A stretch of 64,000 nucleotides of DNA from Sphaerolaimus hirsutus (lineage: Eukaryota > Nematoda > Chromadorea > Monhysterida > Sphaerolaimidae): the NCBI GenBank assembly GCA_964036195.1, contig OZ038453.1:29640997-29704996 (forward strand), in the 5' to 3' direction. The translations under genes and the position numbers were made by a program. A model generated the notes under the pieces. That model ran no database searches. It worked only from the letters and a program-made list of their open reading frames with translations, and was not told the DNA's origin. Positions 608-51,400 of this stretch are shown in pieces (position 1 is the stretch's first letter; each line of letters opens with the position of its first letter).

Positions 608-3600
608 ATGCTACTAATTTTAATGGTGTCACTTTCAACTTCAGCCCTCGGTGACGTTCAAGTTATTTATAACTTAACTATAATATGTGCACTTGTATTT
701 AATTCAATTGATCTGTGTGTAATTCAACATGTTACGCAACAGAACACACAATTTACAGCGGAATCTACACTATCATATCAGAAGAAGAAAAGCAAAGCCA
801 AATTTTCCCTGTCACATAAGTAGTGATGTTAAAGCGCCATGGCGCTTTTGGCGCTTTGAGCTATTTTTGACCGGCGCCAGGAACAAAATGCCTGGCGCCG
901 GCGCCATTTTTCTCTGGCGCCATTGGCGCTTGGCGCTGAGGGCCGGAAAAGCGCCGTTGCGTTTTTGGCGCCGCCAAAGTTCTGGCGCTTTTTACATCAC
1001 TACACATAAGTTATGTGTTAACATGGACACATGCGCTTCACTCGCAGATGGTCAAAACTATTGCAAATCGCCAAAAAATACCCCAGTGCTGCAATACGCC
1101 GGCTGGTGCTGGACCATACTGAGAAGCAACAGTGAGAAATTCCCCAATTTCACTAGTGCCGGTTTGGCACACGACTTGAAGACTGAAACTGGCACCAATC
1201 CCAGACCCTGTAAAATGTGCTGTAAAATGTAAAATGTCATTGTAAAGTGTGTAAAGTAATATAAAATGTTCTCGGTTGCCATATTGCAGGCCATTTTACA
1301 TTACTTTTGACCCTTCCATGACCTTTTACATTTTACAGGGCATTTTACAGGCTCTGGGACTGCCCCTGGTATCATCGCTGCCAATGTGCAGCTGGCAGCA
1401 CCTTTGCAATATGAAATCATGGCTATGGTGTACAGCTTTCTAATAAATGTGAGATTATCATCAACTGTACACCGTATTGTTTCGAAATACCCACTCGAAA
1501 TACCCCCCTCGGAAAAAAAACACTCGAAATACCCTGCTCGAAATACCCCCGCGGAAAAACCTCTCGCCATACCCCACTCCAAAAAGCCGCGAAATACCAT
1601 CTTTGAAAACCACGCTTCAAAATAGCCACTATGATTCTATGAATTAAAAATCATCCCGTTTGAAATACCACTCAAACTGAGTGTAAAAAGAATGTAAATG
1701 TTTAGTTGTGGTCTGAAGTATTATAGTTAGAAAGTAATCATAACTGGGTGCAAAATCATCCTCAGGTGCCGGTTCCGCAGGTGGAAAAGTTAAGAGTAAA
1801 GGGTTAAGAGTTGAGTAAAATGCAGTGTTGTTAAAATACTGGTATTTTGGAAAACGTAAATGTAAATACCTTTTCCAAATTAAAAGTAAAATACTAAAAT
1901 GTAAGGTATTTTTAAAATACCAAGTAATATGTAGAAAAAACGTAAGGCACCTTTTACACTGTGAGACTGTGACGACAAAAAATGCAAATTTTCAGCCATT
2001 CAAAAAAAGCCTTGAAAAACAATTTGTTGGGCGATACATATGAAATATTTTTCATGTGTGAAACCTCAATTGATCATGACTTGATCACCCCCAGTGCCTA
2101 GTAAGGCAGTAAGGCTGATTGAGTCATGATCGATTGAGGCTTCGCGAATGTAAAATATTTCATATGCATCCAACAAAAATGGCTGAAAAATTGCATTTTT
2201 TGTCGTCACAGTCTCACAGTGTAAAAAGCGCCTAAACATTTCATAACAAATTTCATAACATTTCACAAAACAAATTTTTCATACAAGTAGTATTTGCCAT
2301 TCTTCTTTGGAACACACCATTATTTTCACTTTTAGATGTGTAAATTATTGATTTCCATGCAATATCCACGTTTTTTGCACTTGATGCATTTCATCACCAA
2401 CCAGAGTTGTACAAATACTGGTATTTTTTAAAAACATAAACGTAAACCTAAATACCTTTTCCAAATCAGAAGTATAAATACTAAAACGTAAGGTATTTTT
2501 AAAATATCAAGGAATTTCAGTGCATTGAAACTTTTACAACTGTTTTTAGTCTATTTTGGAAAAACACTCCATCAAATATACTTTGAAATCTGGCACACCT
2601 ATCTGAAGAGAGTACCTGGAATTGTGTTGATCATAAATATGACATTTCTTTCACTATTTTGTTCATAATTTGTTGTCAGATTATGACAAAATACAGTTGC
2701 CTACATTCTCTGTGTGGCATCGACTATGGTCGGTAGACAATGGTGACTATGATCGGAGTTTATAAAATGTTTTGGCTATGGTTTGTAATCATCCTAAACA
2801 CTGCACTAATGGGATCGCCACATCATTCTGATCATTTTTAGTGCTCGACAACAAAAATCTGTAAAGAATTCATGGAAATATGCAGGAAATATGCGTCTGA
2901 GGGCGCGGCCACTAAGAAGCTACTAAAGATCAGACTTTTTACTTTTTCCCTAGTACCCGGGTATTTTGGTTAGGAAAACGTAACAAAACGTAATGGTATT
3001 TTTGGAAAACGTAAACGTAAACGTAAATATAAGTAACCAAATAACCGGGTATTTCGGGTAAACGTAAATACGTTTTTCCAACTCTGTCACCAACAACATC
3101 AAGATTTGAACAGTGTGGACAACGATAATGCATCCCGGATGATGTCTGTTTTAGCTCCCCAATCTGCAGCGTTTTTGGATGCCCCCTCCCCAATGTGTCA
3201 GTGGATGTGGATGGCTGCTTGCCGGAAGCATCTTGTAAGTAGGGTGTCAAAAAATTTTTTACGGAATACGGAAACGGAAACAGAAAAAAAAATTCAGCGG
3301 CCGGAGAACGGAACGGAAAACGGAAAAAAATTTGCACTTGGCGGAAAACGGAAACGGAAACATAAAAAAAATTTCAGCAGCCTGAAAACGGAAAAAGAGG
3401 CCGGAAAAACGGAAACGGAATAATCAAATTTGCACGGAAATGGAAAAACTTGCTGAAATTTTGGGAACAGAAAACGGAAAAAATTTGCCTGCAGAAAACG
3501 GAAACGGAAAACAGAAAACGGAAATTTGACACCCTACTTGTAAGTTTGCTGTCATATCATCTTCAAGTTCTGACTTTGTGCTGTACACAGCCACTGTGTC

Positions 3601-6600
3601 GTCATCAGAATTCATCTGGATAGCAGCAAAAATGGTCTACTTCACATGCTTGGCATATGAACACATTTTTATGCAGCCTGTATTCTGTGTGTGACTGTGT
3701 GTGTGCAGTCACTTTTTATTCATACACCATGTTTTTCTTTTGTATACATTTTACATTTTTGCAAAAACGTAAGAATTTTGCTTGCTGTGCACAATGTGGC
3801 TATTTAAAATGAGTGAACGTGTCACCAATGTGATTTTTTATGTTTTTGCCAGTACCCGGGTATTTCGGTCAGGAATAGGTATGTAACAATACATAATGGT
3901 ATTTTCCAAATGCATAAATGTAAATATAAATACCAAAATACCCGGGTATTTCAGGTAAACGTAAATATGTTTTTGCAACACTGGTAAAATGATAAATAAT
4001 ATGTTAAGGGTAAAGTTTAAAGTTAAGAGTTAAGTAAAGTCATTTGTCGTCTCACTCAACTCTTAACTTTCACTTTACTCATAACTTGTCATTTGTCATT
4101 TTACTCAACTCTTAAGTTTTATCTCTTAACTTTTCCACTTGCGGAACTGGCCCCACCCCCAGGTCAGACTGCCCAGACCAGAAACAACCCCACCAAAAAT
4201 ACTCATTTTGCCCACAGTACGCAGCTACAAAACACAGAATTGGTCTGTTCTTTGACACTGTCAGTGCAACTCTACTCTGGCAAAGTGCCAATGGCAACTG
4301 GACCACTGCCAGGTGGCAGTCCCAAGCCCTGTAAAGTGTTAAGTAAAGTGTCACATGTAAAGTCTAATGCAAAGTAAACTGTCAAACGTAAAGTCAAATG
4401 CAAAGCAAACTGTCAATGGACATGCAAAGTTCAGTAATAAAATCTTTTTTTTCGTTTTGATTGCCAGTTTACTTTGCATTTGACTTTCCATTTGACACTT
4501 TACTTTACACTTTACACGGCTTGGGACTGCCCCCAGCACAGATGACTGGGTGGATAAACATAACTTTTCATCGGCAACACCCTATGCAGTAATAAGTGGT
4601 ATGGCGATAATTCCTGACTCTGGCATAGAGAGATCGCCAATTGTTGTGCAATACAGTGAGTATTATTGTAAAATGAAAATATGATATTGTATTTACTGTA
4701 TTTCTTCTAATAGAAGAGTGTTATTCTATTGTTTTACGTACCATTCTATTAGAGGTGCGATTCTATTTGAGGCTACCATTCTATTTTTTCACCATTTTTT
4801 CACAGATTTCGCATTTCAGCATAGCCTTATTTTTTATTAAGATAGAGCAATATTTCAATATCAGAGCATCAATTTGATATTTAACACCTATTTGATTGTT
4901 TGAACATTCTCACCATCCATTTTCAATTTATTTTTTGTGTTCTGGCACACTCCCAACACAATTTCTACCTGCCGTTCTATTGGAGGTGCCATTCAATTCA
5001 TCATATAAATCATATAACTTAACTGTAACGCGAAAACAGGGCCTGGCAAATTGAGTATGGCATGCAAGCCAGGAAAATATGCACTTGGAGAGATAATCGA
5101 TCACGACATACCTGTCAGCAACCAGCAGGTGACAGTCCCAAGCCCTGTAAAGTGAAGTAAAGTGTCAAATGTAAAGTCAAATGCAAAGTAAAGTGTCAAA
5201 TGTAAAGTAAAATGCAAAGTAAAGTGTCAATCAAAACAAACAAAAATAAAAGATTTTACTAATGACAATTGACAGTTTGCTTTACATTTGACACTTGACT
5301 TTACACTTTACAGGGCTTGGGACTGCCCCCAGGAGTGCGAAAGGAGGTGCCACCACAGTGGATTCTGTCTATCCATCAGCTTCGATGTGAACCTCAACCT
5401 CTGCACAATGCACGGGGCTGTGAGAACAGAAAAACTGAATATTATAAAACGAGAAGGGGGCACTCCCAAACCCTGTAAAAGACCATGCAAAGTGTCAAAG
5501 ACCCTGTAAAATGTCATGTGTAGTGTAAAAGACTCTGTAAAGTGTCAAATGTAATGTAAAAGACCCTGTAAAGTATCATCTGTATCCAAATCTTATTGTA
5601 TTGCGTCCAAATCTTCTGTTTTTATACCCAAATATAAGGTCAAAAAGTAAGATTTGGATATGATAAAATAAAATTTGGATACACATGACACTTCACAGGG
5701 TCTTTTACATGACATTTGACACTTTACATGACACATGATATCTTACAGGGTCTTTTAGATGACACATGATATTTTACAGGGTCTTTTAGATGCACATGAT
5801 ATTTTACAGGGTCTTTGACACTCTACAGGATCTTTTACAGGGTCTGGGAGTGGCACCTGGAATGATGTTTTGCACCGGCAAACCGAAATTCAAGGGTGAA
5901 ATACCAAACTTTCAGCCAACTTCAACTAGAAAACCTAACCAACTACAAAAATGCACAATTTCACTGCAGGATGTCCATCGAACTACCGCAGAGGGGATGT
6001 GGAAATTGCAAACACCGTAAACCCAGGGGCAGATTTTCAACCCGTTGGCTCGCAGGTGGAAATCAACTGCATTTCAGTCTATGCAAATGACTATGAATCG
6101 ACGGATAGAACTGTGACATGTGTGGCTGATATGGCCTGGTGCCAGTCCCAGACCCTGTAAAAAGCCTTGTAAAATGTTAAATGTCATGCAAAGTGTCAAA
6201 AGTCATGGAAAATGCGCTGCAAAATGTCAACCGAGTTTTCCAGCAGGGCATTTTCCATGACTTAGGACACTTTGCAGGACATTTGACATTTTACAGGGCA
6301 TTTTACAGGGTCTGGGAGTGCCCCCAGGGATATAGAGCCAGGGAAATGGACGGAACACTTCTGCTTACGACGTATGTTTTCACTTGTATTTCTGTATAAC
6401 CAAATACCGTATTTCCTCGAAATACCCCCAGGGGGTTTATTTTTTCAGACTGGAAATTTTGAGGGGGGGGATTTCGAGGGGGCGGGGGGGGGGGTTAATT
6501 CAAGGGGGGGTATTTCGAGGAAATACGGTTTGTCATCGTGAACTTCACACCAACACATCGTACCGTTTCACATCTGCCTAGTTTACATCTTCAATGATTA

Positions 6601-18600: not shown

Positions 18601-21328
18601 ATGCCCTATCTCCAGTTGTGGGACGGGTGGACAGCTAATACTTTTGTGATATTTATATAGCCATAACTCCCTCTACTTGTTATGAATCGAAGGGGCCTCG
18701 CCATACATGTGAGAAATTTTTTGGGCGTTTTTGCTGCCCCACACAGGTCCAGTCCACTGATTTCTTACGCGAAGGTTTGTAAAATGGGTGCCAATCGTCG
18801 ATGCCGCCACAGGAAAAGGGCGCCGCCCCTCAAATGGAGCCAGCACTATACCATGTCTAATCCCGAGCCCCCTCTCCCTAAAAATCAGACAAGCAGAGTT
18901 GATATTGGGTATTTACTTTTACTCTAAAATACGCGTAAAAACAGCGTACTACTGAGTAAATACCCATGGGTAAAATACTTCAATTGTACCAGTACCCGTT
19001 GTACCCAGTAATTTTTCACAAGTACTAGATACTTTTACTGCCTATACCTATATCATTAAAGTATTGGCTGTTCACCCCACTCACCGCTGCAGATAGGGCG
19101 TGTGAAGTGAAAACAAAAATAGGGGGTCAGACTTACTCGGGCAGGTGTTTACATTGTTTGTAACATACTCAGACATACCAGACTGCCGGAAGGTATGCAA
19201 TTGGGGCTGTGGTGCATGTGTATTGCCCAACTATTAATGGCAACAGAATTTCTGTACCTTGTAATGGTGGTGCCTTGAAGACCTACAATACTGTTCCTTG
19301 GTGTTGGAAAAGTATTGACTTTACCCGAAAAATTGGTGTACTTTGAATTAATTACTTTAATCTGAAACAGTTTCCAGACCTTTGCAGTCACCGACTCACC
19401 AGTGTTCACACAATGCGAATAGACATTTTTCACAGTACTTTATCAGTGGTAAAAACTTTCAACCCTGCATCCAAGATTGTTTTCTTAGAGTTTTGTAGCT
19501 CCAGATGCAGCTGATTGCCGATTGAAAGGAACCTAAGTGGACAATCAATGAAACATTGATGCTGCGGGTTCAGCTTGAATGTGGCCATCCCTTCCCACCC
19601 AGTATGTATTTACCTAAGATGCTGGGCTGGGGGCACTCCCAGACCCTGAAAAAGACCCTGTAAAATGTCATGTGTATCCAAATTTTATGATGTCATATCC
19701 AAACCTTATATTTTTGTATCCAAATCTTATGTGAAAAAGTAAGATTTGGATTCAGAAACATTAGATTTGGAAACAATAAAATAAGATTTGGATACACATG
19801 ACACTTTACAGGGTTTTTTACATGACACATGACATTTTACAGGGTCTTTGACACTTTACAGGGTGTTTTACAGGGTCTGGGAGTGGCACCAGCTCAAGCA
19901 CATCAAATTGTTGAAAACTGCTCCCCAACATGCAATAAAATCGCACTCAACCAGGTGCAAGGGTAAAGTGGCCATTACAGCTCCATGTAAAATTTGACAG
20001 TGTAAAATTTATCTTTGGTCATAAAATTAATTACAGGTGAATGGATGTATGAAGATAAAGCATTGATACCGCAACTAAAGAAAGCGCAGATGTAAATGTT
20101 TCTGGTGCCCAAAGCCCATCTTTTTATTATAATTGTACCATGAGTTATGAATTTTGGCACAAATTACCGTATTTCCTCGAAATACCCCCCCCCCTCGAAA
20201 TACCCCCCCCCCCCCCCCTCAAAATACCCCCCCTCAAAATGGACACTATGAACTTACACAGTGAAACGCAACTCTCCGACAACTCGCTTCCAACTGGCTT
20301 ACAACGCTTTGTTTACTGTTGGCAGCGAGTTGGAATGTAGTTGTCAGAGAGTGGCAGAGAGTTGGAACACAGTTGTCAGCGAGTGGCAGAAAGTTGGCAT
20401 ACATTTCTTTAGCAGCTGCACAGCTGGCAGCGAGTTGTCAGCAAGCTGCACACACGTGAACAGCATGTTTTACATGGGTTGTCAGTGAGCTGAAACCAGC
20501 CCATTGCTTACTGTCAGCGAGTTGGCAGCAAGCTGTAATTTATTGTCAGCGAGCTGGCACCATTTTTGTTGTTCGGCAAGCAAGCTGGCAGCGAGTTGTC
20601 AGATAGTTGCGTTTCACTGTGTTATAAACCCCCCCCCCTCGAAATACCCCCCCCCCAAATTTAGTGTATAGAGAACGTAAATGACAAAGGCTGCGGTTTG
20701 TCATCTGGGTAATGCAAAACACACGTTAAAAACGATGACTCTGTTATGTGAGTACAGTGATTATACGTTTACACACTTATACAAGTCTTTAGAGTCTTAT
20801 AAATGGCGATTTTTGTTGCATTTTTGACGTCTGCGTATGTTTCAGACGACAATTTAGTACTTGGTTTTCAAAAAATTTCTGGCGAAATAATAACCCCCCC
20901 CTCGAAATACCCCCCCCTCGAAATACCCCCCCCTCGTTTAACCCCCCCTCAAAATTCTCACTATGAAACAATAAACCCCCCGGGGGTATTTCGAGGAAAT
21001 ACGGTATTTAAAATTATGCATTGTAATTTTATGTAACTTATGGCTGGCAGGACCGGTCTTGCCAGAAAATTTTGTTGCTGGAAATTACCTCAAAAGCATT
21101 TGAGACGATAGGTAATGGGTCACTAAATAATAGGGCCTAAACCTGAAACAATGCGATCTCGCTACAGCTTCACTGCTACCCTTGACTCGATGAGTATCTA
21201 CTCATTTTCTTTGACTCAAATACTGAACAGAAACACTCGAACAGAACTCAATTAAAGCTCAGTGTGAAGCAGATGGCCAATGGCATTATGATAACTATGG
21301 CTTTATTAGTCCCTACTGCCATGAATGA
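608..21328 (+). CDS. Secreted multi-domain CCP (sushi) / PAN-like protein, 19-exon model
   Basis: Exons: 608-650, 1048-1191, 1369-1448, 1731-1765, 4163-4312, 4537-4655, 5040-5128, 5333-5456, 5860-5895, 5970-6138, 6328-6371, 6652-6721, 11295-11470, 17025-17083, 19173-19311, 19603-19629, 19893-19954, 21051-21111, 21231-21328. They sum to 1725 nt (574 aa plus TGA) and every junction keeps phase. Residues 1-15 are a signal peptide (MLLILMVSLSTSAL). Exon 8 (about residues 221-262) is PAN/apple-like (CERRC, GFCLSISFD, LC). CCP modules with the C-C-C-W-C pattern fall on exons 10-11, 12-13, 14-16 and 17-19; exons 3-6 hold one or two looser ones. Such proteins act outside the cell in adhesion, complement-like binding or matrix. 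No catalytic domain or membrane anchor is seen. Introns 2, 5, 7, 8, 10 and 16 are family A elements and intron 4 is family B. Least sure: the exon 4 acceptor and the non-GT-AG junctions (introns 2, 8, 16). No ortholog recognised. Confidence 0.72.
821..1002. mobile_element. hAT-like MITE, family E
   Basis: TIR TAGTGATGT..ACATCACTA is flanked by a perfect 8-bp TSD CACATAAG. The interior is made of GGCGCC/GCGCCA palindromic arrays. It lies in intron 1 of the CCP/PAN gene. Confidence 0.88.
1192..1368 (-). mobile_element. Family A introner, reverse orientation (intron 2 of the CCP/PAN gene)
   Basis: Ends GCACCAATCCCAGACCCTG..GGCTCTGGGACTGCCC, with CTG on both sides. Exact removal joins ..KTET to GIIAANV in frame. 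In the sense of the gene the intron ends are GC..TG, not GT-AG. Confidence 0.72.
1468..1690. mobile_element. Partial family C MITE
   Basis: Left end CCGTATTGTTTCGAAATACCC followed by CGAAATACCCC arrays; no matching right end. Confidence 0.5.
1820..3100. mobile_element. Family D hAT-like sequences, nested
   Basis: Repeated blocks TACTGGTATTTT and AACGTAAACGTAAA end near TTTTTCCAACTCTG (about 3091). An inverted pair (GAGTTGTACAAATACTGG at 2403) shows more than one overlapping copy. 2066-2290 is an inverted copy of 1930-2060 (GTGAGACTGTGACGACAAAA). Confidence 0.6.
3240..3536. mobile_element. hAT-like MITE, family G
   Basis: TIR TAGGGTGTCAAA..TTTGACACCCTA with perfect 8-bp TSD CTTGTAAG. Interior arrays of GGAAAACGGAAAC. 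Confidence 0.9.
4313..4536 (+). mobile_element. Family A introner (intron 5 of the CCP/PAN gene)
   Basis: GTGGCAGTCCCAAGCCCTG..GGCTTGGGACTGCCCC, CAG before and after. Splicing GT..CAG joins GNWTTA to TDDWVDKHN in frame. Confidence 0.88.
4690..5010. mobile_element. Family K MITE, degenerate (intron 6)
   Basis: TACTGTATTTCTTCTAATAG start and repeated TTCTATTGGAGGTGCCATTC; matches the better copies near 34617 and 44582. Confidence 0.5.
5129..5332 (+). mobile_element. Family A introner (intron 7 of the CCP/PAN gene)
   Basis: GTGACAGTCCCAAGCCCTG..GGCTTGGGACTGCCCC, with CAG on both sides. Splicing joins PVSNQQ to ECERRCHH in frame. Confidence 0.88.
5457..5859 (-). mobile_element. Family A introner, reverse orientation (intron 8 of the CCP/PAN gene)
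   Basis: GGGGCACTCCCAAACCCTG..GGGTCTGGGAGTGGCACCTG. Removal joins NIIKREG to MMFCTGK in frame; ends in the gene's sense are GG..TG. The centre holds the palindromic TATCCAAATCTTAT core. Confidence 0.68.
6139..6327 (+). mobile_element. Family A introner (intron 10, inside a CCP module)
   Basis: GTGCCAGTCCCAGACCCTG..GGGTCTGGGAGTGCCCCCAG. Splicing rebuilds VTCVADMAWDIEPGKW, supplying the invariant Trp and last Cys of the CCP module. Confidence 0.88.
6417..6528. mobile_element. Family C MITE
   Basis: CCGTATTTCCTCGAAATACC..GGTATTTCGAGGAAATACGG; poly-G centre. Confidence 0.85.
7296..8900. mobile_element. hAT-like family G element carrying a BEL/Pao fragment
   Basis: TIR TAGGGTGTCAAA..TTGACACCCTA with perfect 8-bp TSD CTCGGGAC. 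Arms of CCGTTTTCCG repeats surround about 1 kb of minus-strand pol sequence. Confidence 0.9.
7560..8625 (-). pseudogene. BEL/Pao retrotransposon pol fragment (reverse transcriptase region), broken
   Basis: On the minus strand 8625-8068 encodes an RT domain typical of BEL/Pao: YLPHQPVIT, RIVYDGSSGKPSFNECLFRG, ADIKKAFFQIGLHDQARDY, FGLVCSPAILGAVIKYHL. A second frame, 7827-7549, carries the region after the RT (LLVSAYDSIGFTAPISLTLK, then WDEP). The frame is broken between them; protease, gag, integrase and LTRs are absent. The fragment is enclosed by the arms of a family G hAT-like MITE, which itself has a perfect 8-bp TSD, so the retroelement piece was captured by or inserted into that element. 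Confidence 0.8.
9176..9481. mobile_element. CACTA-like MITE, family F
   Basis: CACAGCAAAAAATGGG..CCCATTTTTTGCTATG with 3-bp TSD ATA; interior GGAAGACACTTCACC-type arms. Confidence 0.85.
9702..10208 (-). pseudogene. Degraded gag-like or unknown mobile-element ORFs
   Basis: Two consecutive minus-strand open stretches (10208-10020 and 9995-9702) read as a polar, serine/threonine-rich protein (RQKIYKLTDSWNMRALVNAI; TDKDSSGDSSDSGNM), separated by a stop. They lie about 1.1 kb upstream, on the same strand, of the BEL/Pao pol fragment, but other elements intervene. No gag zinc knuckle is visible. The region about 9482-10640 is otherwise free of the recognised MITE arms. Confidence 0.35.
10678..11064. 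mobile_element. Family M inverted-repeat element with nested family D2
   Basis: CGTAAAGTAAACTCGGCCG near the left and TTTACTTTACGGCCGAG at the right. The centre carries CGTAAACGTATTTACG blocks of family D2. Confidence 0.6.
11600..12600. mobile_element. Foldback element with about 300-bp arms
   Basis: The arm TTTTGTAGTATAGGGCATCC..GTCGACGCACACGCACC and onward to about 11900 returns inverted at about 12305-12600. The spacer is a family F element. Both arms encode a false overlapping ORF. Confidence 0.75.
11935..12281. mobile_element. CACTA-like MITE, family F, nested
   Basis: CACAGCAAAAAATGGGG..TTTTGGCTGTG with 3-bp TSD TGA, in the centre of the foldback element. Confidence 0.85.
13194..14262. 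mobile_element. hAT-like family J element with embedded family A sequence
   Basis: CAGGGTTGGCAAAAT..AAACCAACCCTG with perfect 8-bp TSD CCCATGAG. A family A-like block (about 13448-13893) sits inside. The copy at 55196 carries the same block. Confidence 0.9.
14533..15088. mobile_element. Family P inverted-repeat element
   Basis: TACAGGGGTGGGCATTTTCA..AATGCCCACCCCTGTA with long inner repeats (TCAGTTGCCGCTG/CAGCGGCAACTGA). Confidence 0.8.
15276..16128. mobile_element. hAT-like family D element with nested family A
   Basis: CAGAGTTGG..CACAACTCTG with perfect 8-bp TSD CAATCTGC. The interior has an ATG ORF start (MNSDDALATTV) like those at 3615 (minus) and 34557, perhaps the remnant of the parent transposase N-terminus. 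A family A copy sits at about 15667-15857. Confidence 0.88.
17084..18266. mobile_element. Family D2 hAT-like copies in intron 14
   Basis: Three runs of CAAAGTACTGAACTTTTT..TTTTAACAACTATG/CTCTG type with GTACGCGAGTA blocks (17096-17590, 17665-17880, 18110-18266). Boundaries are approximate. 17880-18110 has no recognised feature. Confidence 0.5.
18334..18404. mobile_element. Short family E MITE inside a degraded family C repeat
   Basis: TAGAGATGTAAAAGCGCC..TTTTACATCACTA; surrounding 18308-18512 has family C signatures. Confidence 0.65.
18552..19151. mobile_element. Family I element
   Basis: TAAACACCTGCC..GGGCAGGTGTTTA, with inner repeat CCTATTTTTGTTTTCACTTC-like. It ends 20 bases before the exon 15 acceptor. 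Confidence 0.8.
19630..19892 (-). mobile_element. Family A introner, reverse orientation (intron 16 of the CCP/PAN gene)
   Basis: GGGGCACTCCCAGACCCTG..GGGTCTGGGAGTGGCACCAG. Removal joins YLRCWA to AQAHQIVENC in frame. An AG is present at the 3' end, but the 5' end is GG rather than GT. Confidence 0.7.
20167..21004. mobile_element. Family C element with a private tandem-repeat interior
   Basis: CCGTATTTCCTCGAAATACC..GAGGAAATACGG with TA on both sides. The 20260-20620 interior is about 30-bp CAGCGAGTTGGCA-type repeats, not seen in other C copies. Confidence 0.8.
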
Positions 21329-31200: not shown

Positions 31201-34200
31201 TGCAAATGTCAAATCAGTTATTTCCAGTTGAGGGAGAAAGTTCCAGGGTTTACTATTTAACAAGTTTGTGCAGAAAGTTCAAAAGCCAATTTTTATTCTT
31301 GATCAACTTTTATGAACAGGCAAACAAATTGAGAGCACAAATTCAGAAAATTAGATGCAAAAGTTTAACAGTTAATTCCAATTTGACAGCAATCAAAAAT
31401 CCAATAAAAATCAATAAAACTACAGAAGCATAATTCAAAAAAGGGGACTGAAAAGATCAGAAAGTTTGATAAACAAATGCACAATTTGACAATTTCAGCA
31501 AGCTCTAAGAGCGATAAATAGATGAAAAGGGTTTAAAAGGGTTTTCACAATTTGATAAATTCACAAGTTCAAAAGGGTAGACAAGGGGTAAAAAAAGATT
31601 TCAACACTTTTAAAACATCCAAAAATCAATATATCAAACCTTCCAAACACAAAATATGACAAAAATATGGGTGCTGATTAAAGGCTACACCAGCCACACC
31701 CAGGGAGGGCAGACATGAGCTTGGGGGAGAGCATCTATTGACTGAGCATACTCACCCCACAAGACCCAAGCTCCCAGCTCAGGCTAAGTGCTGATTAGCC
31801 ACCTAAGGGCACTTTAGACACTTGGCACTGACAAATCCAGTAGACAAAGACAGTAACATAAACCAGGCTGGCTCATACTAGTCTTTAGTAGACTGGAGAA
31901 TGAATAATTAGTTCAGTAGTTGAGTGAGTGAGTGAGAGAGGGTTCTGATTCTGCTTTTATAGCTCAAAACTGGTTTTTTACTTGGGCGGAGCCAACCAAT
32001 CAGTTTGGAGTTACTTTAGTTTGAACTGTTACAAAAATAAGTGACTACCTTTGTATGAGCACAGTATGGCTTATGGGGTACTTTTGGGTCTTGTGGGTGT
32101 AACCCTTTAAAATCAGAGAAGCAATACACACTGCACAAGATTATCCTAATAGGTGGAGCTTAAAGGTAAACTTAAGAATAGACCTGGCAATGAGCCAAAA
32201 CATGAATATGAAGGAAACAGGCTCCAGCTACAACTTACAAGCACAAAGAAGCATAAAAAACAAGGGAAATAGCACAAAACTGAATAGAACTCACTAGCTG
32301 GAGCACGTAACCACACCCAACAAGTACCAGAGACTGCAACCTTTGTGTTACTAACCTCTAAGACAAAAGCAACAACACAAGAAAACAAGAGAAGATGAAA
32401 CAAGATCAGTGAATTAGAAACAAGGTTTATCACAGTGCCTTTGTTATGTATATCACAATGAGGTTACATTTGACAATACACAAGTTAGAATGAGCTAAAA
32501 AGCCACAAGTTAGTGAAATATCACACCTATTTACAACAAATATACATGGACATGGGTGAAGATTGAAGTTGTTTAGAGTCACCCCAAAGTTGTATTAGCA
32601 GTTAAAGAGCATGATTTTGATCAAAAATGGTACAAATTGCATCAAAGTCAGATTACAAACAAGTTAGATACAGTGAAAACTGTCTTTACTAAGAACCAAC
32701 TCATATCAAAAAATATTGAGATTTTACAACAACTACGGATCAAGGTGAGGTTTATGCCATGTGTTCTGGGGCTCTTTCCGAGTCAGAATATCAAAAATCA
32801 CGTAGTTTCGCTCAGAAACGGGTCCAGAATTAAAGGTGGAACATTTTAAGTCAAATACGAAAATAACACGGCTAAACTTTCAAAACAAGTGCAAATATGT
32901 CACAAACAAGAATATACAGTAAATACTGGTTAGTTGAAACAATTTGAGTCCTGTCGGATCCTCCTGGATGTCCTTCTAGGCCAGAAACTATTGTTGGAAC
33001 TGTGCCAAGGTCAATAGAACACCGACAGTACGAAGCCCGAAGTTGGCCGTGTCGTCCACAATTCACACGCTTGGCTGAACTTGGGGGTGGTATTTTATCA
33101 TAAACCAGCTCTTCAAGTGTCTAATAAAAAAGTTCCAGCAAATGTGAATTATTTGTCATCCATTTATTTTGGGGTCGTTTTTTTAGAGAATAGAAGTTTT
33201 TACTAAAATTGTACAAAAATTCAAATTATTGTACAATTTTACTAAAATTTTACAAAAATTCAAATTTTAGTAAAATTGTATTTTTATTTTTTTATTTTCC
33301 ATTTTATTTTATTTTATTTTATTGTATAATTTTCCATTTTATTTTTATTTTATTTTTATTTTTTTCTGAGATTTTGCCAACCCTGGGCACAAGTGAAATC
33401 AAAAATAGGGCGCCGGACGTGACCGGGAAGGTGTTTACATCAGGTATGCAAGGTGCATGATGTGTTTATTACTACGAATTAGCATTGCAGCTACACTTAC
33501 TGTATATGCTCATTTGTTTACAGATGTACATCTAAAGCCCCAATATAACCTATTTTCTCACGTTTATTGCCGTTTTTGTGTATTAAAAAGCGTATTCTGT
33601 ACTATGAATTTCATGAAAATTTATGACAATATAATAACCCCCCCCCCCTCGAATAAGCCCCCACCCTCGAATTAACCCCCCACCCTCGAATTAACCCCCC
33701 CCCCCCTCAAATGTTGCTGGTGAAATAATAAACCCCCCTTACACTCAATTGGGGGTATTTCGAGACGGGGTTATTTATTCATAGTGGCCATTTTGAGGGG
33801 CGGGGGGTATTTCAAAGGGGGGGGGGGTTTCGAGGACATACGGTATACTTTGAAGAAAGTTCGATACTCTTACCACCTTTGCCACTGGATTCTGCCACTG
33901 CAACTGAGACAAAATTTCAGGTTGCCAACGTATTACTCAACGCAATCGCCATCAAACAGTGGATAGATGGGATTATGCTCGTCTCTACAAATACAATATG
34001 GTCAATTGGCGGGCCTTCGGCATTCGTGGATATTTGGACAACATATACCTTTGCTGGTGGCAGTCCCAAGCCCTGTAAAGTGTAAAGTAAAGTGTCAAAT
34101 GTAAAGTCTAATGCAAAGTAAATTGTCAATTGTCATGCAAAGTTCAGTAATAAATTTTTTTCTTTTTTGTTTTGATTGACACTTTACTTTGCATCAGAGT

Positions 34201-36814
34201 TGCGAAAGCGTATTTACGCTTACCCGAAATACCCGGGTAAATGGGTATTTATACTTACGCTTACGCTTACGCTTTCATAAAATACCTGTACGCTATTTTA
34301 CGCTTTCCCGGCCAAAATACCCGGATACTAAAAGCGTAAAAAAGCTTTTCACACGGTTCAGTTTTACACATTTGAAAAAGCATAAAACCACAAAAAAGAG
34401 TGAACGAAACTACGTGTCAAAAAAATTACTGCGTGCATGCAGTAATGTGCTGGAAATAGTGGCACATTTACAAATTGTGTCGCAGTACGAATGTCTTGCT
34501 AATACTGTGTCGTCGAGCAAAATCGTGGCTTCAGATAAGAAGTTTTGGGCTGAAAATGGATTCCAACGACGATGTTGTCGCTGTCGACAGCACTAACTCC
34601 AAGTTGGAAGATAAAAAGATGACTTACTGTGTTTCTTCTAATAGAACGGCAGCCTCCAATAGAACGGCACCTCCCATTTAACGGCAGGCAAAAAAGTTGA
34701 CAAAAAAAATTGAACGGTGCTCTCCTATTATAAGAAATACGGTAAGTGTCGCTGCCGATGAATTGCCAAACAACATATGAGGGCAGACTACTAAGTGGAC
34801 ATCCGAAAAATGTCGCTGAGAGCTTTATTTGGAAAGAATTCACTGAGAAAACATATTTTAAACTTTTTTTACGCTTACGCTTTTATTTACGCTTTCCCAG
34901 GTATTTTAAAAATACCTTACGCTTTAAGTATCCATACTGAAAATTTGGAAAGTGTATTTACGCTTACGCTTACGCTTTCCAAAAATACCGGTATTTTAAT
35001 AACTCTGCTTTGCATGTGACTTTACATTTAACACTTTACTTTACACTTTACAGGGCTTGGGACTGCCCCCAGGACTGGGTATCAATATTGTCTACTTGCT
35101 CTTCGGTTGTTGGGCAGCAGTGGCTTGCTGGCACTTTCGCAAGAGTCTCAAAAGTGACAAGCCAGGTGGCAGTCCCGCACCCTGTAAAGTGCTCAAGTCA
35201 AGTGTCAAATGTCACGCAAAATGAGAATAAAAAGATAAACACCTTCCCGGACAAGTTCACCACCCATTTTTTTATTTCACTTCAAATGCAATATCTCCGT
35301 CCATGGGGGTGTTATAAAGCTGAAACTTTGTATATATAAAGTTGTAAGACCCCTCTACTCACCAACAATGGGGGAGGTGCGGCGACTCACTGCAGGGTGG
35401 GTCACCCTATATGCAACAATTTTTTTGGCGTTTTTGGTGTCCCAAACAAGTTCACCACCCACTTGATTGGCTACACTACGAGAGCCATATCTCCAGCTGT
35501 GATGGCGGTATAAAGCTGAAATTTGGGGGATGTCTTGCCAACAACCCCCTTCACGATCCACCAGTGGGGCGGCTGCCAACAACCCATTAAAGCATGGGTC
35601 ACTGCATATAAAGTTAACCATTTTCTAAAAACAGCCCAAGTGTCCCAAAACAAGTTCATTACCCAACTGCATTAAAAAAATGTTGCAACAACATACCTAA
35701 TAAAAGAATGAATCGGGTTGGAACACTATTTCAGCCAAAAACAATTTTTTTCAGTAGGGCATCCACCCTGTCCCATAAACAGCCAACTGAAAATTTCACT
35801 TTAAACCAATTCTTTGTATCACACTTAAAAAGTTGGTTTACAAAGTTCACTAGAGGAGGGTCTAAGGTTTAAAGTTATGTAAACAACATAACCTCTAAAA
35901 TGCTTCCATAAGGAAATTTACTTGGGGTGAATTCTATGATGTCAAAATGATGTCATTTCAGGAAGAAAATTTGACAAAATTTTCACTTTTTCATTCACCC
36001 CAAATAAATTTCCTTATGGAAGCATTTTAGAGGTTATGTTGTTAACATAACTTTGAACCTTAGACTCTCCCCTAGTGAACTTTGTAAACCAACTTTTTAA
36101 GTGTGATACAAAAAATTGGTTTAAAGTGAAATTTTCAATCTGCTGTTTATGGGACATGGTGGGTGCACTACTGAAAAAATTTTAATGAGCAGAACTAGGG
36201 TTCATATCTGATTCAATTTTATATCAGGTATGTTCTCACAACATTTTTTTATAATTCATTTGGGTGGTGAACTCGTTTGGGACACTTGGGTTGTTCTTAA
36301 AAAAATTAGCAAATTTATATGCAGTGACCCATGCTTTAGTGGGTCGTCGGCAGCCGCCCCACTGGTGTATTGTGAGGGGGGTTGTTGGCAAGACATCCCC
36401 CAAATTTCAGCTTTCTACCGCCCTCACAGCTGGAGATATAGCCTTCAAAGTGTAGCTAATCAAGTGGGTGGTGAACTTGCTTGGGACACCAAAAACGCCA
36501 CAAAATTTTTTTGCATATAGGGCGACCCACCATGTAGTGAGTCGCCACACCTCCCCCCATTGTTGGGGAGTAAGGGGGTCTTACAACTTAATATATACAA
36601 AGTTTCAGCCTTATAACACCACCATGGACGGAGATATTGCATTCAAAGTGAAATAAAAAAATGGGTGGTGAACTTGTCCGGGAAGGTGTTTATTTAGTTT
36701 CTGAACATCTGCATGACATTTGACACTGGACTTTACACTTTACAGTGTGCGGGACTGCCCCCAGATAGCTCGCAGGACCAGTCCACGCAGCAGGCAGAAT
36801 CGATTCCACAGTGA
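28232..36814 (+). CDS. Multi-pass membrane protein, 3' end resolved, 5' end open
   Basis: Coding pieces: about 28232-28477 continued at 28957-28967 after a hAT insertion, then 33860-34056, 35073-35165 and 36765-36814 (TGA). They sum to 597 nt and all phases agree. The protein has hydrophobic spans (near SLIGCGLNVVGVLVTVLP, VADVLLFIAGVLLICA, PAIAFWLMVSTF, a weaker one in exon 33860-34056, and GINIVYLLFGCWAAVACW) and a polar tail ending QQAESIPQ. It probably sits in a membrane; no family recognised. The last two introns (34057-35072, 35166-36764) are family A elements with clean GT...CAG ends, each carrying nested transposons. A family A left end also starts the intron at 28968, but its right end is lost and the acceptor used here (GAAGAAAG|TTCG) is inferred. 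The frame runs into a stop at 28229, so the start or an upstream exon is unresolved. Confidence 0.55.
28478..28948. mobile_element. hAT-like family E element inside a coding exon (plus-strand membrane gene)
   Basis: TAGTGATGGAATGGCGCC..GGCGCTTTTCCATCACTA with TSD GTTTTGAC/GTCTTGAC. Removing it restores FVSFDKHT in frame up to a family A donor. Confidence 0.85.
28968..29016 (+). mobile_element. Truncated family A left end
   Basis: CACACCAG|GTGCCTGTCCCAGACCCTG begins an intron, but the right end is not found; D2 and C sequences follow directly. Confidence 0.6.
29349..29751. mobile_element. hAT-like MITE, family H
   Basis: TAGGGTTCAAACGGG..CCCGTTTGAACCCTA with perfect 8-bp TSD CTCACAGG. Interior GGTCCC/GTCCCG arrays. 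Confidence 0.92.
29882..30894 (-). pseudogene. Unclassified decayed ORFs inside a nested insertion
   Basis: Minus-strand open stretches 30894-30670, 30652-30305, 30339-30142 and 30130-29882 follow each other in changing frames, with a repeated SQEWAGGASQEW motif and a basic segment (KAAVSRSKKCKVAVCKKGM-like). A TATA-type promoter lies upstream on the same strand. The block is enclosed by the arms of a family I element and does not match its short copies, so it looks like foreign cargo, perhaps a retroelement gag region or a captured gene. No conserved domain recognised. Confidence 0.35.
30988..31113. repeat. Two-copy 63-bp tandem duplication
   Basis: The block starting TTTCAGCTTGGACACAAAAC is repeated almost exactly at 63-bp spacing, with one or two differences. 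Confidence 0.85.
31930..32010 (-). promoter_or_regulatory. Promoter-like cluster: TATA, CCAAT and GC boxes
   Basis: On the minus strand CTGATTGGTTGGCTCCGCCC is followed about 30 bases later by GAGCTATAAAAGC and then a pyrimidine-rich CTCTCTCACTCACTCACTCA. This is the classic order and spacing of an RNA polymerase II core promoter. It would drive minus-strand transcription toward the decayed ORFs at 30894-29882. It could be a cellular promoter or part of an LTR; no LTR ends were found. Confidence 0.5.
34057..35072 (+). mobile_element. Family A introner (intron of the membrane gene) with nested D
   Basis: GTGGCAGTCCCAAGCCCTG..GGCTTGGGACTGCCCCCAG. Splicing joins TTYTFAG to LGINIVYLL in frame. 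The left flank is CTG, the right CAG. Confidence 0.88.
34195..35007. mobile_element. hAT-like family D element, nested
   Basis: CAGAGTTGCG..AATAACTCTG with perfect 8-bp TSD CTTTGCAT. It carries the MDSNDDVVAV ORF start (34557) and a K-type MITE (about 34623-34741). Confidence 0.9.
35166..36764 (+). mobile_element. Family A introner (last intron of the membrane gene) with nested I
   Basis: GTGGCAGTCCCGCACCCTG..GTGTGCGGGACTGCCCC with CAG on both sides. Splicing joins KSLKSDKP to DSSQDQSTQQ in frame. Confidence 0.88.
35236..36692. mobile_element. Family I foldback, nested
   Basis: TAAACACCTTCCCGG..CCGGGAAGGTGTTTA; the two halves are inverted copies over most of their 1.46 kb. Confidence 0.88.
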
Positions 36815-36876
36815 CCAATCGCAATGTGATTTGTCAGATATCACCCCCAATCACAGTGAAAGATGCATGTGTGATC

Positions 36877-44276: not shown

Positions 44277-44581
44277 TTCTCACGTCTCAATTTGCTCCAG
44301 GCGCCAATTTTAATTCTATATTTGCACAAAAGGCGAAAATCCGCGTATATAGTAAAATGGAATATTTATCTAAATATTTACGCTGAGCAAATAAATGCAA
44401 CAGTCGTTGTAAGATGGATAGATAGTAAAATGCTTTACAAATGCAAACACTGAACATTTGTGAAACAAATATTTGTTTAGGATTGTACAGATATGAAGTG
44501 GTCACTCCAAATCAGAAATCATTTCATTTGTACAATTTTGTTCACTCTGAATTCACTTTGCCCGACACACTACTTTGCTAC

Positions 44582-45365: not shown

Positions 45366-45369
45366 GAAA

Positions 45370-46060: not shown

Positions 46061-46193
46061 TATTATATTTTACATAATATTTTAGAAATTTGTCACACAT
46101 TTGCATGAGATTTGACAAATTTGTCATACATATGACATTTGGCCAATTTGTCACACATTTTATATTTTACTAGCCCAATACAAAAATATGCAT

Positions 46194-46567
46194 ACTGTAT
46201 TACCTTGAAATACCCCCAGGGGGTTTAATATTCCGCCAGCAAAATTTGAGGGGGGATAATTCGAAGGGGGGGTTTATTCGAGGGGGGGTCTATTTTTTCG
46301 CCAGAAATTTTTGAAAATTCCCCATACGCGGACGTAGAAAAATCGAACAATCGATGTATATGTGTTTATAGGTATATATAACTGTATAGGTATACACATA
46401 AGCCCTTCCCTAACGTCACTTGATCATCACTTTTAACGTGTGTTCTGCATTGTACAGATCACAAACTGCGGTATTTGTCATGTAAGTTCTCTTTACACTC
46501 AATTTTAGGGGGGGTATTTCGAGGGGGGGTTTATTTAAGGGGGGGATAATTCGAGTTAATACGGTAA
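46194..46567. mobile_element. Family C MITE
   Basis: CTGTATTACCTTGAAATACC..TCGAGTTAATACGG. The following 46570-47150 contains three AT-rich minus-strand open stretches that I cannot support as genes. Confidence 0.75.
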
Positions 46568-47158
46568 TTATATTTGATACCACTTTTCAACCACGCAAAA
46601 TTCTCCATCAACTCATTGAATTTGAGTGACAAATGAGTGGCCGCAAAAAAAAAGTGTAACCCCCACCTAAACACTTGAAGTGGTGCTTTTTCCATTGAGA
46701 ACATGATGTGAAGTTTGAAGATGAATCTTGACATGTGACTTTTTTTACTTTGGCTGAAAAAAACGTGAAAAAGTAAACATGAATGACTTCATGATTCACA
46801 TGAAAAACACTTTTCATGATGCATGAGAATCAATTCTTATTTTTGAAAGTAAATATAAATGCATGGAACTTGATGATGTCCGAATATTTTTCCTCTTGAA
46901 ATGAAGAGAGTTTCTCAAAATTTGAACATTTTTGTGATATTTTTTGCAACAAATGCACAAATTCGAAATTTCCAACAGAAAGTGAAACATGCCACAATGT
47001 TTGTTTGCACAGTCATTCTGATTTTTGGACATTTCAATTAAATATACCTACATTTTTACACGAAAAGTAGCAAAGTCACAGTCAGGAGCTTATGCTGGAT
47101 ATCGACAAGTGACTCGCAAAGGTTTAAGTTCTAAAATAGTGATAAGTCAAGTGACCCG

Positions 47159-48221
47159 GTGCCAATCTCAGATCCTGTAAAATGTAAAGTGTCATGCAGT
47201 GTGCACAGTCATGTAAAATGTTCTGTAAAACTGCAAATATCATGCAGAGTGTCTAAAGTCATGTAAAATGTAATAAAAATGTAATTTAACATTTTACAGC
47301 GCATTTTACATGACTTTTGAAGCTTGACAGTTGACATTTTGAAGTATCTGCGAGTAGTCCCAGTGAACTGAGTATGTTAAGTTATTCTACATAGGTATAC
47401 AAATTTACTTGTCACTTAATTACCACTTATACCTTTATTTACCACATTTCCTTGAAATGCCCCCGGGGAGTGATGTTTTAATAGTGCAAATTTTGAGGGC
47501 AGTCCCACACTGTGTAAAATGTAGAGACAAATGTCAAATGTCACGCAGAATGTCAATTCAATTAAATGAAAGATAGATTTTATTACTGAAGTTTTGACAT
47601 TTTGCATGACAAATGCCCAATTTTTATGACATTTTACCTGACGTTTGACACTTCATGGGCTGAGGGACTGCCCCCAGGGGGCAGTCCCAAGCCCTGTAAA
47701 GTGTAAAGTCAAGTGACAAATGTAAAGTCAAGTGTCAAGTCAAATGTCAAATGTAAAGTCAAGTGTCAAATGTAAAGTCAAGTGTCAAGTCAAATGTCAA
47801 ATGTAAAGTCAAGTGTCAAATGTAAAGTCAAGTGTCAGGTCAAATGTCAAATGTAAAGTAAAGTGTCAAATGTAAAGTCAAATGTAAAGTATAGTGTCAA
47901 TTGTGTATCCAAATCTTATTTTTCGTATCCAAATCTTATGTTTTTGTATCCAAATCTTGTTTTTCGAAATAAGATTTGGATTCAAAAACATAAGATTTGG
48001 ATACGAAAAATAAGATTTGGATACGAAAAATAAGATTTGGATACACAATTGACACTTTACTTTACATTTGACATTTGACTTGACACTTGACTTTACATTT
48101 GACACTTTACTTTACATTTGACATTTCACTTGACACTTGACTTTACATTTGACATTTGACTTGACACTTTACTTTACATTTGACACTTTACTTTACACTT
48201 TACAGGGCTTGGGATTGGCAC
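47159..48221 (+). mobile_element. Cluster of three family A elements
   Basis: 47159-47357 (degenerate), 47500-47677 inside a truncated family C left end, and 47681-48221 (GGGCAGTCCCAAGCCCTG..GGCTTGGGATTGGCACCAG) directly abutting it. The third has long direct repeats of GTAAAGTCAAGTGTCAAATG and the TATCCAAATCTTAT core. Confidence 0.75.
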
Positions 48222-48312
48222 CAGATATCTGCAAATTTCATAACACCAGAATTCTAACAAATGATCTCAACATTGAACACAAATTTTACAGGCTAAAATT
48301 TCAATTTAAATG
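48222..48312 (+). CDS. Possible terminal exon after a family A element
   Basis: Directly after the right end of a family A element (..GGCACCAG) one frame stays open from ATATCTGC to a TGA (ICKFHNTRILTNDLNIEHK). The layout matches confirmed exon edges elsewhere, but the matching upstream exon was not found: the other side of the element pair is a truncated family C repeat. Confidence 0.2.
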
Positions 48313-48436
48313 ATTTCTATACAAGTATCGAATTTCTATTGAATTTATTATTTGTCTAATTAAATACAGAGTGCAAATAAAAAAAATTGAAAGTAGAAAA
48401 AAACGTTGCGGCGAAATTGTAAACAAATACTTAAAA

Positions 48437-51400
48437 ATGTCGCAGAATTTTCTGGATAGTTTATTTGCTAGTGGAAGGACATTTCTTCTCGCTGGCTGGC
48501 TGGGAGTGTGTGGTAATTTTTTTCGTTTTTTTACAGTAGATATTCATCATGTTGAAACTACCGTATTTGCTTAAATAGTTCCCCCTTGAATAATTCCCCC
48601 CTCGAATAATTCCCCCCTGTAAGGCGAGTGAGGAAAAAATAATTCCCCCCTCGAATAATCCCCCCCTTAAGAGATTTGCCCAATTTAGTTTGCCCAATTT
48701 GAACAAAAATGGCACGTTTTTGTGTCAATAAAGCATATTTCATCAAATGGGTTGATAGAAACATGGTTGAAATTGTTGACGAAATAATAATTCCCCCCCT
48801 CGAATAATTCCCCCCCCTCGATTAGTTCCCCCCTCAAAAAAGTCTGACGAATTAATAATCCCCCAGGGGGATTATTCAAGCAAATACGGTATACTCCCCT
48901 TTAATTATTTTTTTAAACCTCCCTCTGAAAAAAACGGTTTGAAAACTTTGGAAAGACACGTGAAATGTCAACTTCCTAGTCAAAAGTGACAAACATATTG
49001 ATGACAATTTATTCACTTATCACTCACCGTATTTCCTCGAAATACCCCCCCCCCTTGAATTATCCTCCCGCCCTCGAAATACCCCCAGGTGTTTTCGAGC
49101 TGAGAAAAAAATAACCCCCCTCCCCTCGAAATACCCCCGAAATACCGAAATAAGGTACATCATGTATGCAAGGAACATGATGTATTTCTTGCGACACTTT
49201 TGCATCGCAGTTATACGTATACACTTGTTTGTGTAGCGATGTACGTTTACATCCCTGTTATGTCCATATACCGTATTTCCTCGAAATACCCCCCCACTCG
49301 AAATACCCCCCCCCCTCGAAATACCCCCCCTCAAAATGGGCACTATGAATTTGTGGTCCGGGAAATGCATAACAGACATTCAAAACACTTACTGTGTTAC
49401 GTTAGAACATCGTTTATACGATCTACATCCTTATATAAGGCTGAAAAACTTATAAATGGTGGTTATTGTTGCATTTTTCACGTTTTTCCTTCAAAATTTT
49501 CACTCTGATAAAATAAACCCCCGGGGGGTAATTCGAGGAAATACGGTATCCCTATATTTGGTCACGTTTATTACCGGTTTGGGGTATGTAAAAGCGTATT
49601 CTTTGGTATGACTTTTCCAAAAATTTCTGACGAAAAAATAACCCCCCTCCAATAAGCCCCCCTCCCCTCGAAGTACCCCCCCTCCCCAAAATTTCCACAC
49701 TGAAAAAATAAACACTCTGGGGGTATTTCGAGGAAATACGGTAGTTATATTTGGCGGATCGCAAAGTATGAGCCCAAAATTACTTACCTATTTATGTCTT
49801 AGTCGAGAACGCGCGAGCAGGGCACTTATGTACGCACTTTCACAGAAAAATATATTCTAAGAAGAGAAAAAAACGGAATCAAGTAATTATAAAGTTTTTT
49901 TCGGAACAATTTTTTATTAATAATGACGTCATGATGGAGTATTTCATTCAGAAAAATGCATAACATTTTTCCGCCGAGTGTCATAAAATTCTGTCACAAC
50001 TTTTCCAAATCCCACATGAAATACCGTAACCATTTTTAATGCCAAAACCGAAACGTAACTCGCAGAAACGGAACAAGAGAACCCTCCGAGAAGTGCGGAA
50101 TCACTAATTGGCTGGAAGCCAATTCCTTGGCACCCAGGTGCGGAATTTAATTGACCCGAAACAATTTTGTCGGGCATCCCGAAAATTTGTAATGTGCAAA
50201 AATTTCCGTTGAAAATTAGTGTATGAAAGCATCCAAGACATTTGCTTTTTTGCATCCAAAACATTTGCAATTGCGAGTATGCACTGGCAAAGTAATATAA
50301 ATCGCCACAAAACACACATTCAATCGGGGAACATAAAATTTCAAATACAGTTTATCGGGTTACCCGACAAAAAAATGGCTGGGCAAATTAAATTTCGCCC
50401 CAGGTTTCGTCGTTCTCAGAAACGATCCACCGTGCATCGCTTGTTATAATAGCGAAGAGGTGAGTAAATTTTTTTGTATACTTGAAAATCAGGGTCTAAT
50501 TTTTGGCGGAAATTTGAATTTTGGAGAAAAAAGAAAAAAAGAAAATTCCGGTTTTCGTAAGCTGATCTTGGCATGTTGCCAAAACTAGAATTTTCCCCTA
50601 ACTTCTACCTCGCAGAATGTTTTACTAAAGAGTATACCTAGTTGACAATCAAGTATACCAAATGTCAACTGGTTCCCATCCCAATTCAAAGACTTTTCAC
50701 GAGCTGACGAACGACGTTCAAATGCAAAAGTGTAGAATCATGTTTCGAATGAAGCTGGACTGTTAAAAGCGTAGTGTGAATGATGAAGCACTTGTGATGA
50801 AGCTTTGAATTGGGATTGAAACCGGTTCACATTTCGTTTCATTGTATGTAGGGCCATTGAACGTTTTGTAATTTGAACTTGGCTAGTTTCCAAATTATTC
50901 AAATTTGTCCCGAATTCCCCAAAAATTTTTCATAACACATTTCCCAAATTTTGCAGGCAGCCGAGAGCGATTCTGGCGGTTTGCCGATTTTCCGAATAGA
51001 TTTTTGCGATTTTGGAACGGTGCCAAATTTTATGCGCATACCGAAAATGACCGATTTAGATTCTAAAGAGCGCATTTCCAAATCGGGAAAAAATCGTGAT
51101 AGAAGTAATACTGCTTTGTTTAGAGTCTATGAGCAGGTGAGCTTTTCTCACTTTTTGGATGAGTGCCAATTTTTCAAGGATGGTTGAGAAGGCGCGGAAC
51201 ATTTTTGTTGTGTTCTGGGGGCTCAATATATCGATTTTTTCAATGTATAGGATGCAGAAAATGTACATAATCGCTGAAATTGGAGGAAATAAAGCCAAAA
51301 ATAAGCAAAACGCACATGAAATAAGGATTTGAAAGAAAGATTGGCTAAAAGGTCTGAAGATTAGCGATTTTGAAAGGAACATTTTTTCAAAATTTTTCAA

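What the first reader, a model, noticed from the sequence alone, without database searches (positions are those of the whole stretch)
1766..50403. Three unrelated MITE families act as ready-made introns (introners)
Families A, B and S have different terminal repeats and interiors. Yet each starts with GT at its own first base, is followed by CAG, and sits after CAG (sometimes CTG) in coding sequence. Taking out GT..CAG restores the frame at 4312/4537, 5128/5333, 6138/6328, 34056/35073, 35165/36765 (A), 1765/4163 (B) and 50137/50404 (S). At 6138/6328 it rebuilds the Trp-Cys end of a CCP domain. A CAG target duplication would give the 3' splice site while the TIR gives the 5' site. Convergent use by three families suggests selection for CAG targeting or for splicing ability.
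Basis: partly seen in the sequence, partly recalled or inferred. Interest (0 to 1): 0.93.

Follow-up and report, generated by a model that had tools for sequence, protein, structure and literature searches.

The report
Jumping DNA acting as ready-made introns
In this animal-like genome a short, very common jumping DNA element begins with a splice-start signal and copies a splice-end signal from its landing site, so that when it lands in a gene it can probably be cut out of the message like an intron; this is direct material for studying how new introns arise.

Summary
The GT..CAG coordinates are exact. Family A is a real introner-type MITE in a 348-Mb genome, with 1,634 exact left ends. It makes a 3-bp, CWG-biased target duplication; its left terminus starts GT, its right terminus (read inward) GG. 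So its first bases offer a 5' splice site and the duplicated CAG a 3' site. Removing GT..CAG joins open frames at all five A sites of the window, one inside a PAN domain; elsewhere it rejoins an EGF domain and, most tellingly, exon 1 of a multi-copy DDE_Tnp_4 transposase gene, whose unbroken paralog aligns to the joined sequence over 354 nt without a gap. The 'three convergent families' claim is weaker. B is a real family with GT/GG ends, but this copy lies just upstream of a native 3' splice site, not in an exon. S is one insertion event plus a gene duplicate. The CWG habit is the published mark of NuwaI (PHIS) transposons, so pre-adaptation of one transposon group may explain it better than three inventions; no autonomous relative was found. 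Exon bias is not shown. Some duplications are mixed (CTG left, CAG right), also outside genes. Splicing itself was not observed: no RNA data.

The parts
4313..4536 (+). family A copy: GT..CCCC element (4313-4533) plus 3' copy of the CAG duplication (4534-4536); predicted intron, splits a codon
5129..5332 (+). family A copy, predicted intron inside a PAN_1 domain, between codons
6139..6327 (+). A-like copy with left CTG and right CAG; predicted intron near the end of a Sushi-like stretch (below Pfam cut-off)
34057..35072 (+). family A copy (1016 nt), left CTG, right CAG; predicted intron
35166..36764 (+). family A copy (1599 nt, long inner inverted repeats), CAG/CAG; predicted intron, probably same gene as the previous one; two frames open across it
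50138..50403 (+). S element, CAG/CAG; predicted intron; locus duplicated 26 kb downstream with the element inside
1766..4153 (+). B element; right terminus at ..GGCCC|CAC; lies just upstream of a probable native acceptor (CACCCCCAG, 4154-4162); not an exon insertion
25960..27031 (+). family A copy with GT..CAG ends; no frame open beyond 5 codons on its right: not in coding sequence
5456..5856 (-). A' copy (related subfamily), antisense to the PAN gene
19629..19889 (-). A' copy, no long open frame around it
47678..48221 (-). family A copy beside another A-type end, CTG/CTG flanks in its GT orientation (no acceptor)
4164..4312 (+). gene 1 coding segment left of the first A insertion
4537..4655 (+). 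gene 1 coding segment to native-looking donor GTGAGT
5040..5128 (+). coding segment, PAN domain start
5333..5449 (+). coding segment, PAN domain rest (3' limit uncertain)
5970..6138 (+). coding segment, Sushi-like; link to the PAN part unresolved
33921..34056 (+). gene 2 coding segment, membrane-protein-like by eye
35073..35165 (+). gene 2 coding segment between the two A copies
36765..36814 (+). gene 2 last segment with stop TGA in the frame followed
50066..50137 (+). gene 3 coding segment after a native-looking acceptor
50404..50459 (+). gene 3 coding segment to native-looking donor GTGAGT

Best explanation
Family A is a non-autonomous DNA transposon (MITE) that resembles the NuwaI group of PHIS transposons. 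It inserts at C-A/T-G and duplicates those 3 bp. Its right terminus reads inward GGGGCARTCCC; its left reads GTGGCARTCCC: one base (G to T) gives a 5' splice site at the first base of the element, and a duplicated CAG gives the 3' splice site directly after it. In a sense insertion into an exon, GT..CAG is then an intron whose removal leaves the message as before. Shown: ends, duplication, empty sites, frame and domain restoration, in-frame stops if retained. Inferred: that the spliceosome uses exactly these sites, that the T is kept for splicing, and that a PHIS transposase moves it.
For: 1,634 exact copies of the 24-base left end, 0 of the reversed control. Within-copy left-right match above shuffle only at the three flank positions, z 5.1, 4.1, 3.9, in 83 copies; a non-CWG duplication also matches (CAT/CAT in L062; ATG/ATG in L046 and L047, one duplicated locus). 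Ends GT/GG in 79 of 84 A pairs (GT was part of the bait), and in 14 of 24 A' and 5 of 7 B pairs, which were not bait. Empty sites in repeats. Transposase exon 1: 15 copies (89-100% identity) split at residue 54 with the same 186-nt gap, one close paralog unbroken over 116 aa/348 nt, about 100 distant ones unbroken; joined sequence against the paralog 354 nt, 89.8%, 0 gaps. EGF domain of L003 rejoined, 30.2 bits against cut-off 21.5. PAN in the window.
Against: No RNA evidence: exact insertion and frame do not by themselves show which splice sites are used. Donors match 5-7 of 9 consensus positions, and the acceptor tract is short. Internal GTAAAG donors and a TTTACAG acceptor exist. L029, an antisense copy, lies in an exon with zinc-finger matches (24.3 bits, cut-off 25.2), where GT..CAG is not available. 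L062 (CAT/CAT, no AG) joins a weak Nse4_C match (16.8 bits, cut-off 26). 7tm_1, Piwi and Sushi matches at other junctions are below their cut-offs, and L024 gave only unrelated weak matches. Two DDE_Tnp_4 loci were read and neither shows A-type termini of its own within the 4.7-4.8 kb fetched.
Confidence: 0.76

Rival explanations
1. Introners, but spliced mostly at internal sites: the sub-terminal repeat holds GTAAAG near the left and TTTACAG near the right, so part of the element stays in the message.
For: TTTACAG sits 19 nt before the end in 4 of 5 window A copies and GTAAAG 18 nt from the start in 4 of 5; GTAAAG with the terminal CAG would add 18 nt, in frame, which could also serve the antisense copy in L029.
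Against: The internal acceptor with the outer donor adds 19 nt and shifts the frame. Exact spacing in EGF L003 and equal length against the transposase paralog fit full removal, but they show exact insertion rather than site use, so they do not decide.
Confidence: 0.14
2. Ordinary MITEs whose exon insertions are disabling; the interrupted genes are broken copies and nothing is spliced.
For: Many sampled copies show no recognisable coding context or lie in repeats; two of the hosts, L024 and L082, look like mobile elements themselves.
Against: Five A insertions in two or three window genes are all in gene orientation with joinable frames; the transposase gene with the insert is present in 15 close copies with both parts free of stops; PAN and EGF domains rejoin above cut-off.
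Confidence: 0.08
3. One reading: three unrelated families were each selected to target CAG and to splice.
For: A, A' and B each show GT at one end and GG at the other in most pairs; most S-type right ends read CAG (8 of 10 loci).
Against: B here is not in an exon; S is one insertion event plus a duplicate; the CWG target is a published group trait (PMC4482050), so a common transposase habit explains the acceptor without selection.
Confidence: 0.12

Closest known systems
Introners (Gozashti et al. 2022, PMC9860276; abstract, results section and TSD/TIR method section read; passages)
   Same: MITE-like elements with TIRs and/or TSDs that create introns on insertion; a case with the 5' site in the element and the 3' site co-opted is described (Chrysochromulina, 4-bp TSD, no TIR seen).
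   Different: Here a 3-bp CWG duplication together with TIRs, a one-base asymmetry between the TIRs, mixed left/right triplets, and an introner inside a transposase gene. The species here is unnamed, so overlap with the two animal groups of that study cannot be excluded.
NuwaI group of PHIS transposons (PMC4482050; passages read)
   Same: CWG target duplication confirmed by empty sites; TIRs usually beginning GGG; known from animals.
   Different: Left TIR begins GTG; no autonomous copy with these TIRs and a Myb/SANT gene found.
Amoebophrya introner elements (PMC7789003; passages read)
   Same: Inverted repeats that join the intron ends, 3-5 nt direct repeats at the exon/intron boundaries.
   Different: Those are described mainly as non-canonical introns without family-specific inverted repeats; here GT..AG and shared TIRs.
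Aureococcus/Micromonas introners (Huff et al. 2016; recalled, paper not held)
   Same: Splice site partly supplied by the target duplication (recalled).
   Different: Different TSD length and hosts (recalled).

Membership tests
Introner | similar introns at several gene positions, similarity reaching the splice boundaries | tested here: met
   five A sites in the window, L003, L082 family; introns predicted, not observed
Introner | insertion into exons with an empty counterpart | tested here: met
   transposase paralog L083
Introner | spliced from mRNA | not testable with these tools
   no RNA data
Introner | enrichment in genes | tested here: inconclusive
   no annotation; 27 scanned peptides of the C1 sample without a match above cut-off
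MITE | TIRs, TSD, no coding capacity, high copy number | tested here: met
   no coding capacity judged by length and open frames only
NuwaI (PHIS) | 5'-CWG-3' TSD | tested here: met
   mixed triplets are frequent
NuwaI (PHIS) | TIR begins GGG | tested here: inconclusive
   right end GGG, left end GTG
NuwaI (PHIS) | autonomous partner: DDE transposase plus Myb/SANT gene between the same TIRs | tested here: inconclusive
   DDE_Tnp_4 abundant; two loci read, no A-type termini of their own in the stretch fetched

The most novel reading that the evidence does not exclude
The element can bring its flanking triplet from the donor site: target duplications are sometimes hybrid, with one side from the target and the other not (L034: target CTG, now CTG/CAG; L059: target CAT, now CTG/CAT). 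A copy leaving a CAG site would thus carry its own acceptor into CTG targets and widen the set of exon sites where it makes a working intron. A CWG transposon with one base change in one terminus would then be a self-contained intron maker.
Probability: 0.33. Interest if true: 0.78.

Novelty: new member of a known kind. Interest (0 to 1): 0.62.

Why it matters
Where new introns come from is an old question, and animals have given few cases (two groups in PMC9860276). This genome offers well over a thousand copies of one family, exact empty sites, sense insertions in identifiable domains, and a simple rule (CWG duplication plus one terminal base) that RNA-seq can test at once. It also suggests why one transposon group may turn into introners easily.

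Tried and rejected
B as an exon insertion: rejected from closed upstream frames and from the terminus seen in other B copies. CTG-to-CAG change as splice selection only: weakened, because L034 lies in a repeat and still shows it. The excess of CTG/CAG over CAG/CTG (12 to 2) is partly an artefact: the query ended in CAG; in the C1 sample it is 3 to 2, where the left-right association at the middle base alone is p 0.055, against 2.3e-5 for all A pairs. In that sample L046/L047 and L070/L071 are duplicated loci, so some counts are not independent. Recombination between copies as source of mixed flanks: unlikely for L034 and L059, since both outer flanks match one empty site. Protein homologs of gene 1: 80 candidates, none at E 0.01; PDB none; gene 3 only weak lectin matches. 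Autonomous partner: not found. Searches for gene 1 and gene 2 paralogs, for B copies genome-wide and for COX1 (organism) did not complete. The link between the PAN part (to about 5449) and the Sushi-like part (from 5970) is unresolved; they were joined only for searching.

Sampling. Of the 137 peptides listed, 30 were scanned: ten, chosen by eye (seven from the C1 sample, three from the first sample), and twenty sense peptides of the C1 sample. The peptides were chosen because they looked coding.
Full report
What was checked. The window lies in a 348-Mb genome of 762 contigs with pieces up to 34 Mb. PAN and EGF domains suggest an animal; no species name is available.

Family A. A genome search with the 4313-4537 copy scored 40 copies at 89-100% from 1,490 candidates; an exact 24-base left end occurs 1,634 times (799 + 835), the reversed control 0 times. 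39 of the 40 copies start GT (the query contained GT, so this alone shows little). Reading both ends in 305 kb of sequence (80 sources, window included), 79 of 84 A pairs are GT at one end and GG at the other; for A' (14 of 24) and B (5 of 7), which were not bait, the same asymmetry is the commonest state.

Target duplication. In 83 copies the left and right flanks match within a copy beyond shuffling only at three positions (z 5.1, 4.1, 3.9). On the left C and G stand in 79 of 83 each, on the right in 71 and 70. In the C1 sample of 40 paired elements: CAG/CAG 8, CTG/CTG 6, CTG/CAG 3, CAG/CTG 2, ATG/ATG 2 (one duplicated locus), CAT/CAT 1, and 18 other pairs. A lenient filter gave spanning matches for 22 of 83 copies, several of them poor alignments in simple repeats; by eye the clear ones are L004, L008, L013, L019, L020, L023, L034, L056 and L059. 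They show the triplet once in the empty site. Two of these copies, L004 and L020, sit in one repeat and are each other's empty site.

Mixed triplets. L034 came from a CTG site but is CTG/CAG; L059 from a CAT site but is CTG/CAT. The transposase copies are CTG/CAG while the empty paralog reads CAG; there later substitution cannot be excluded. I propose that one flank can be donor-derived. This is inference from few cases; the duplicated loci L070/L071 differ at this very base, so plain mutation or conversion also plays a part.

Coding insertions. Frames are open across the joins, with the ambiguity at 35165 told in the observation check. Retention gives stops from codon 7-19. PAN_1 spans one junction. 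Elsewhere, the EGF domain of L003 (30.2 bits, cut-off 21.5; match 28-58, junction codon 54) and JAG1-like_EGF2 (29.4, cut-off 27) are rejoined. 7tm_1 in L033 (18.7, cut-off 30.5), Piwi in L037 (15.5, cut-off 28.9) and Sushi at 6138 (15.3, cut-off 20.7) are below cut-off and only suggestive; L024 gave two unrelated matches below cut-off. Against a simple picture: L029 lies antisense in an exon with zinc-finger matches just below cut-off (the best stretch lies left of the junction), and L062 with CAT/CAT joins a weak Nse4_C match. Of 27 scanned C1-sample peptides none passed a cut-off. The joins are short, so this is a weak test, but it gives no sign of strong exon enrichment.

The transposase case. 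Looking for a PHIS transposase, 163 DDE_Tnp_4 matches came up (150 of 306 candidates scored). One family (L082) has an A copy in the first exon of its own transposase gene. With GT..CAG removed, the 116-residue N-terminus finds one close paralog unbroken over 348 nt at 83%, 15 copies at 89-100% split at residue 54 with the same 186-nt gap (sequence read in two of them, L082 and L085), one diverged split copy (L084, read), and about 100 distant copies at about 40% that are unbroken. DNA of the paralog aligns to the joined sequence over 354 nt, 89.8%, without a gap; the dozen bases left of the junction are its most diverged part. So the insertion is shared by copies of different age, and the transposon family multiplied with it. 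This is the strongest evidence that the element is tolerated in coding sequence.

B and S. B is a real family with termini GKGCCRGTTCCGCAAG, but the window copy ends at ..GGCCC|CAC and the following CCCCAG|GTCAG is best read as a native acceptor; no long open frame lies upstream. S has 12 matches in the genome: itself, a 94% duplicate in a duplicated locus, and ten that share only 50-106 bases at the right. Of ten loci read (the duplicate and nine of the ten), eight have CAG there.

Splice signals. The donors match 5-7 of 9 consensus positions and the acceptors have 8-10 pyrimidines in 17. The 4313 copy with flanks folds into one long stem that brings both sites together (-117.4 kcal/mol, shuffles -63, z -11), which may help or hinder. 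Internal GTAAAG and TTTACAG are rivals.

Placement. CWG duplications and GGG termini are the marks of NuwaI transposons (PMC4482050, passages). The cognate autonomous element was not found. In the held library, 'introner' with 'Harbinger' occurs together in one paper, on fungal introns (listing only); 'Harbinger' does not occur in the main text of PMC9860276; a search with introner and tunicate terms listed 12 of 374 papers, of which PMC13326754 mentions introner transposons once (passages). Subscription papers and preprints are not held, so this is no proof of novelty. Taken together: A is a new introner family of a known kind with a clear and simple splice-site rule; the convergence claim is reduced to a shared transposon habit; splicing remains to be shown.

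Noticed in passing
L082 (G000:C4:24231300-24236100, minus strand): A multi-copy DDE_Tnp_4 transposase gene carries an A introner in its first exon; 15 close copies are split at the same place.
   Followed up: yes
L029: Antisense A copy inside an exon with C2H2 zinc-finger matches and native-looking acceptor and donor; an internal GTAAAG donor plus CAG would add 18 nt in frame.
   Followed up: partly
L033: In what looks like a rhodopsin-type receptor near TM6, a second A-like right end lies about 20 nt upstream of the A copy, its flank reading CGG.
   Followed up: partly
L070 and L071: Duplicated loci 84 kb apart sharing one A insertion, differing at the middle base of the left triplet (CAG versus CTG).
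   Followed up: no
G000:C4:29627453, about 13 kb upstream of the window (L081): A copy of another, very numerous DDE_Tnp_4 transposase family whose match is interrupted by stop-bearing stretches that look like ordinary introns.
   Followed up: partly
window 6405, 8956, 20165, 21006, 49026, 49269 and others: A frequent repeat with ends TACCGTATTTCCTCGAAATACCC, unrelated to A.
   Followed up: no
window 8071-8691, minus strand: Open frame of 207 aa that looks like a Pao/BEL-type retroelement polymerase piece (recognised from memory).
   Followed up: no
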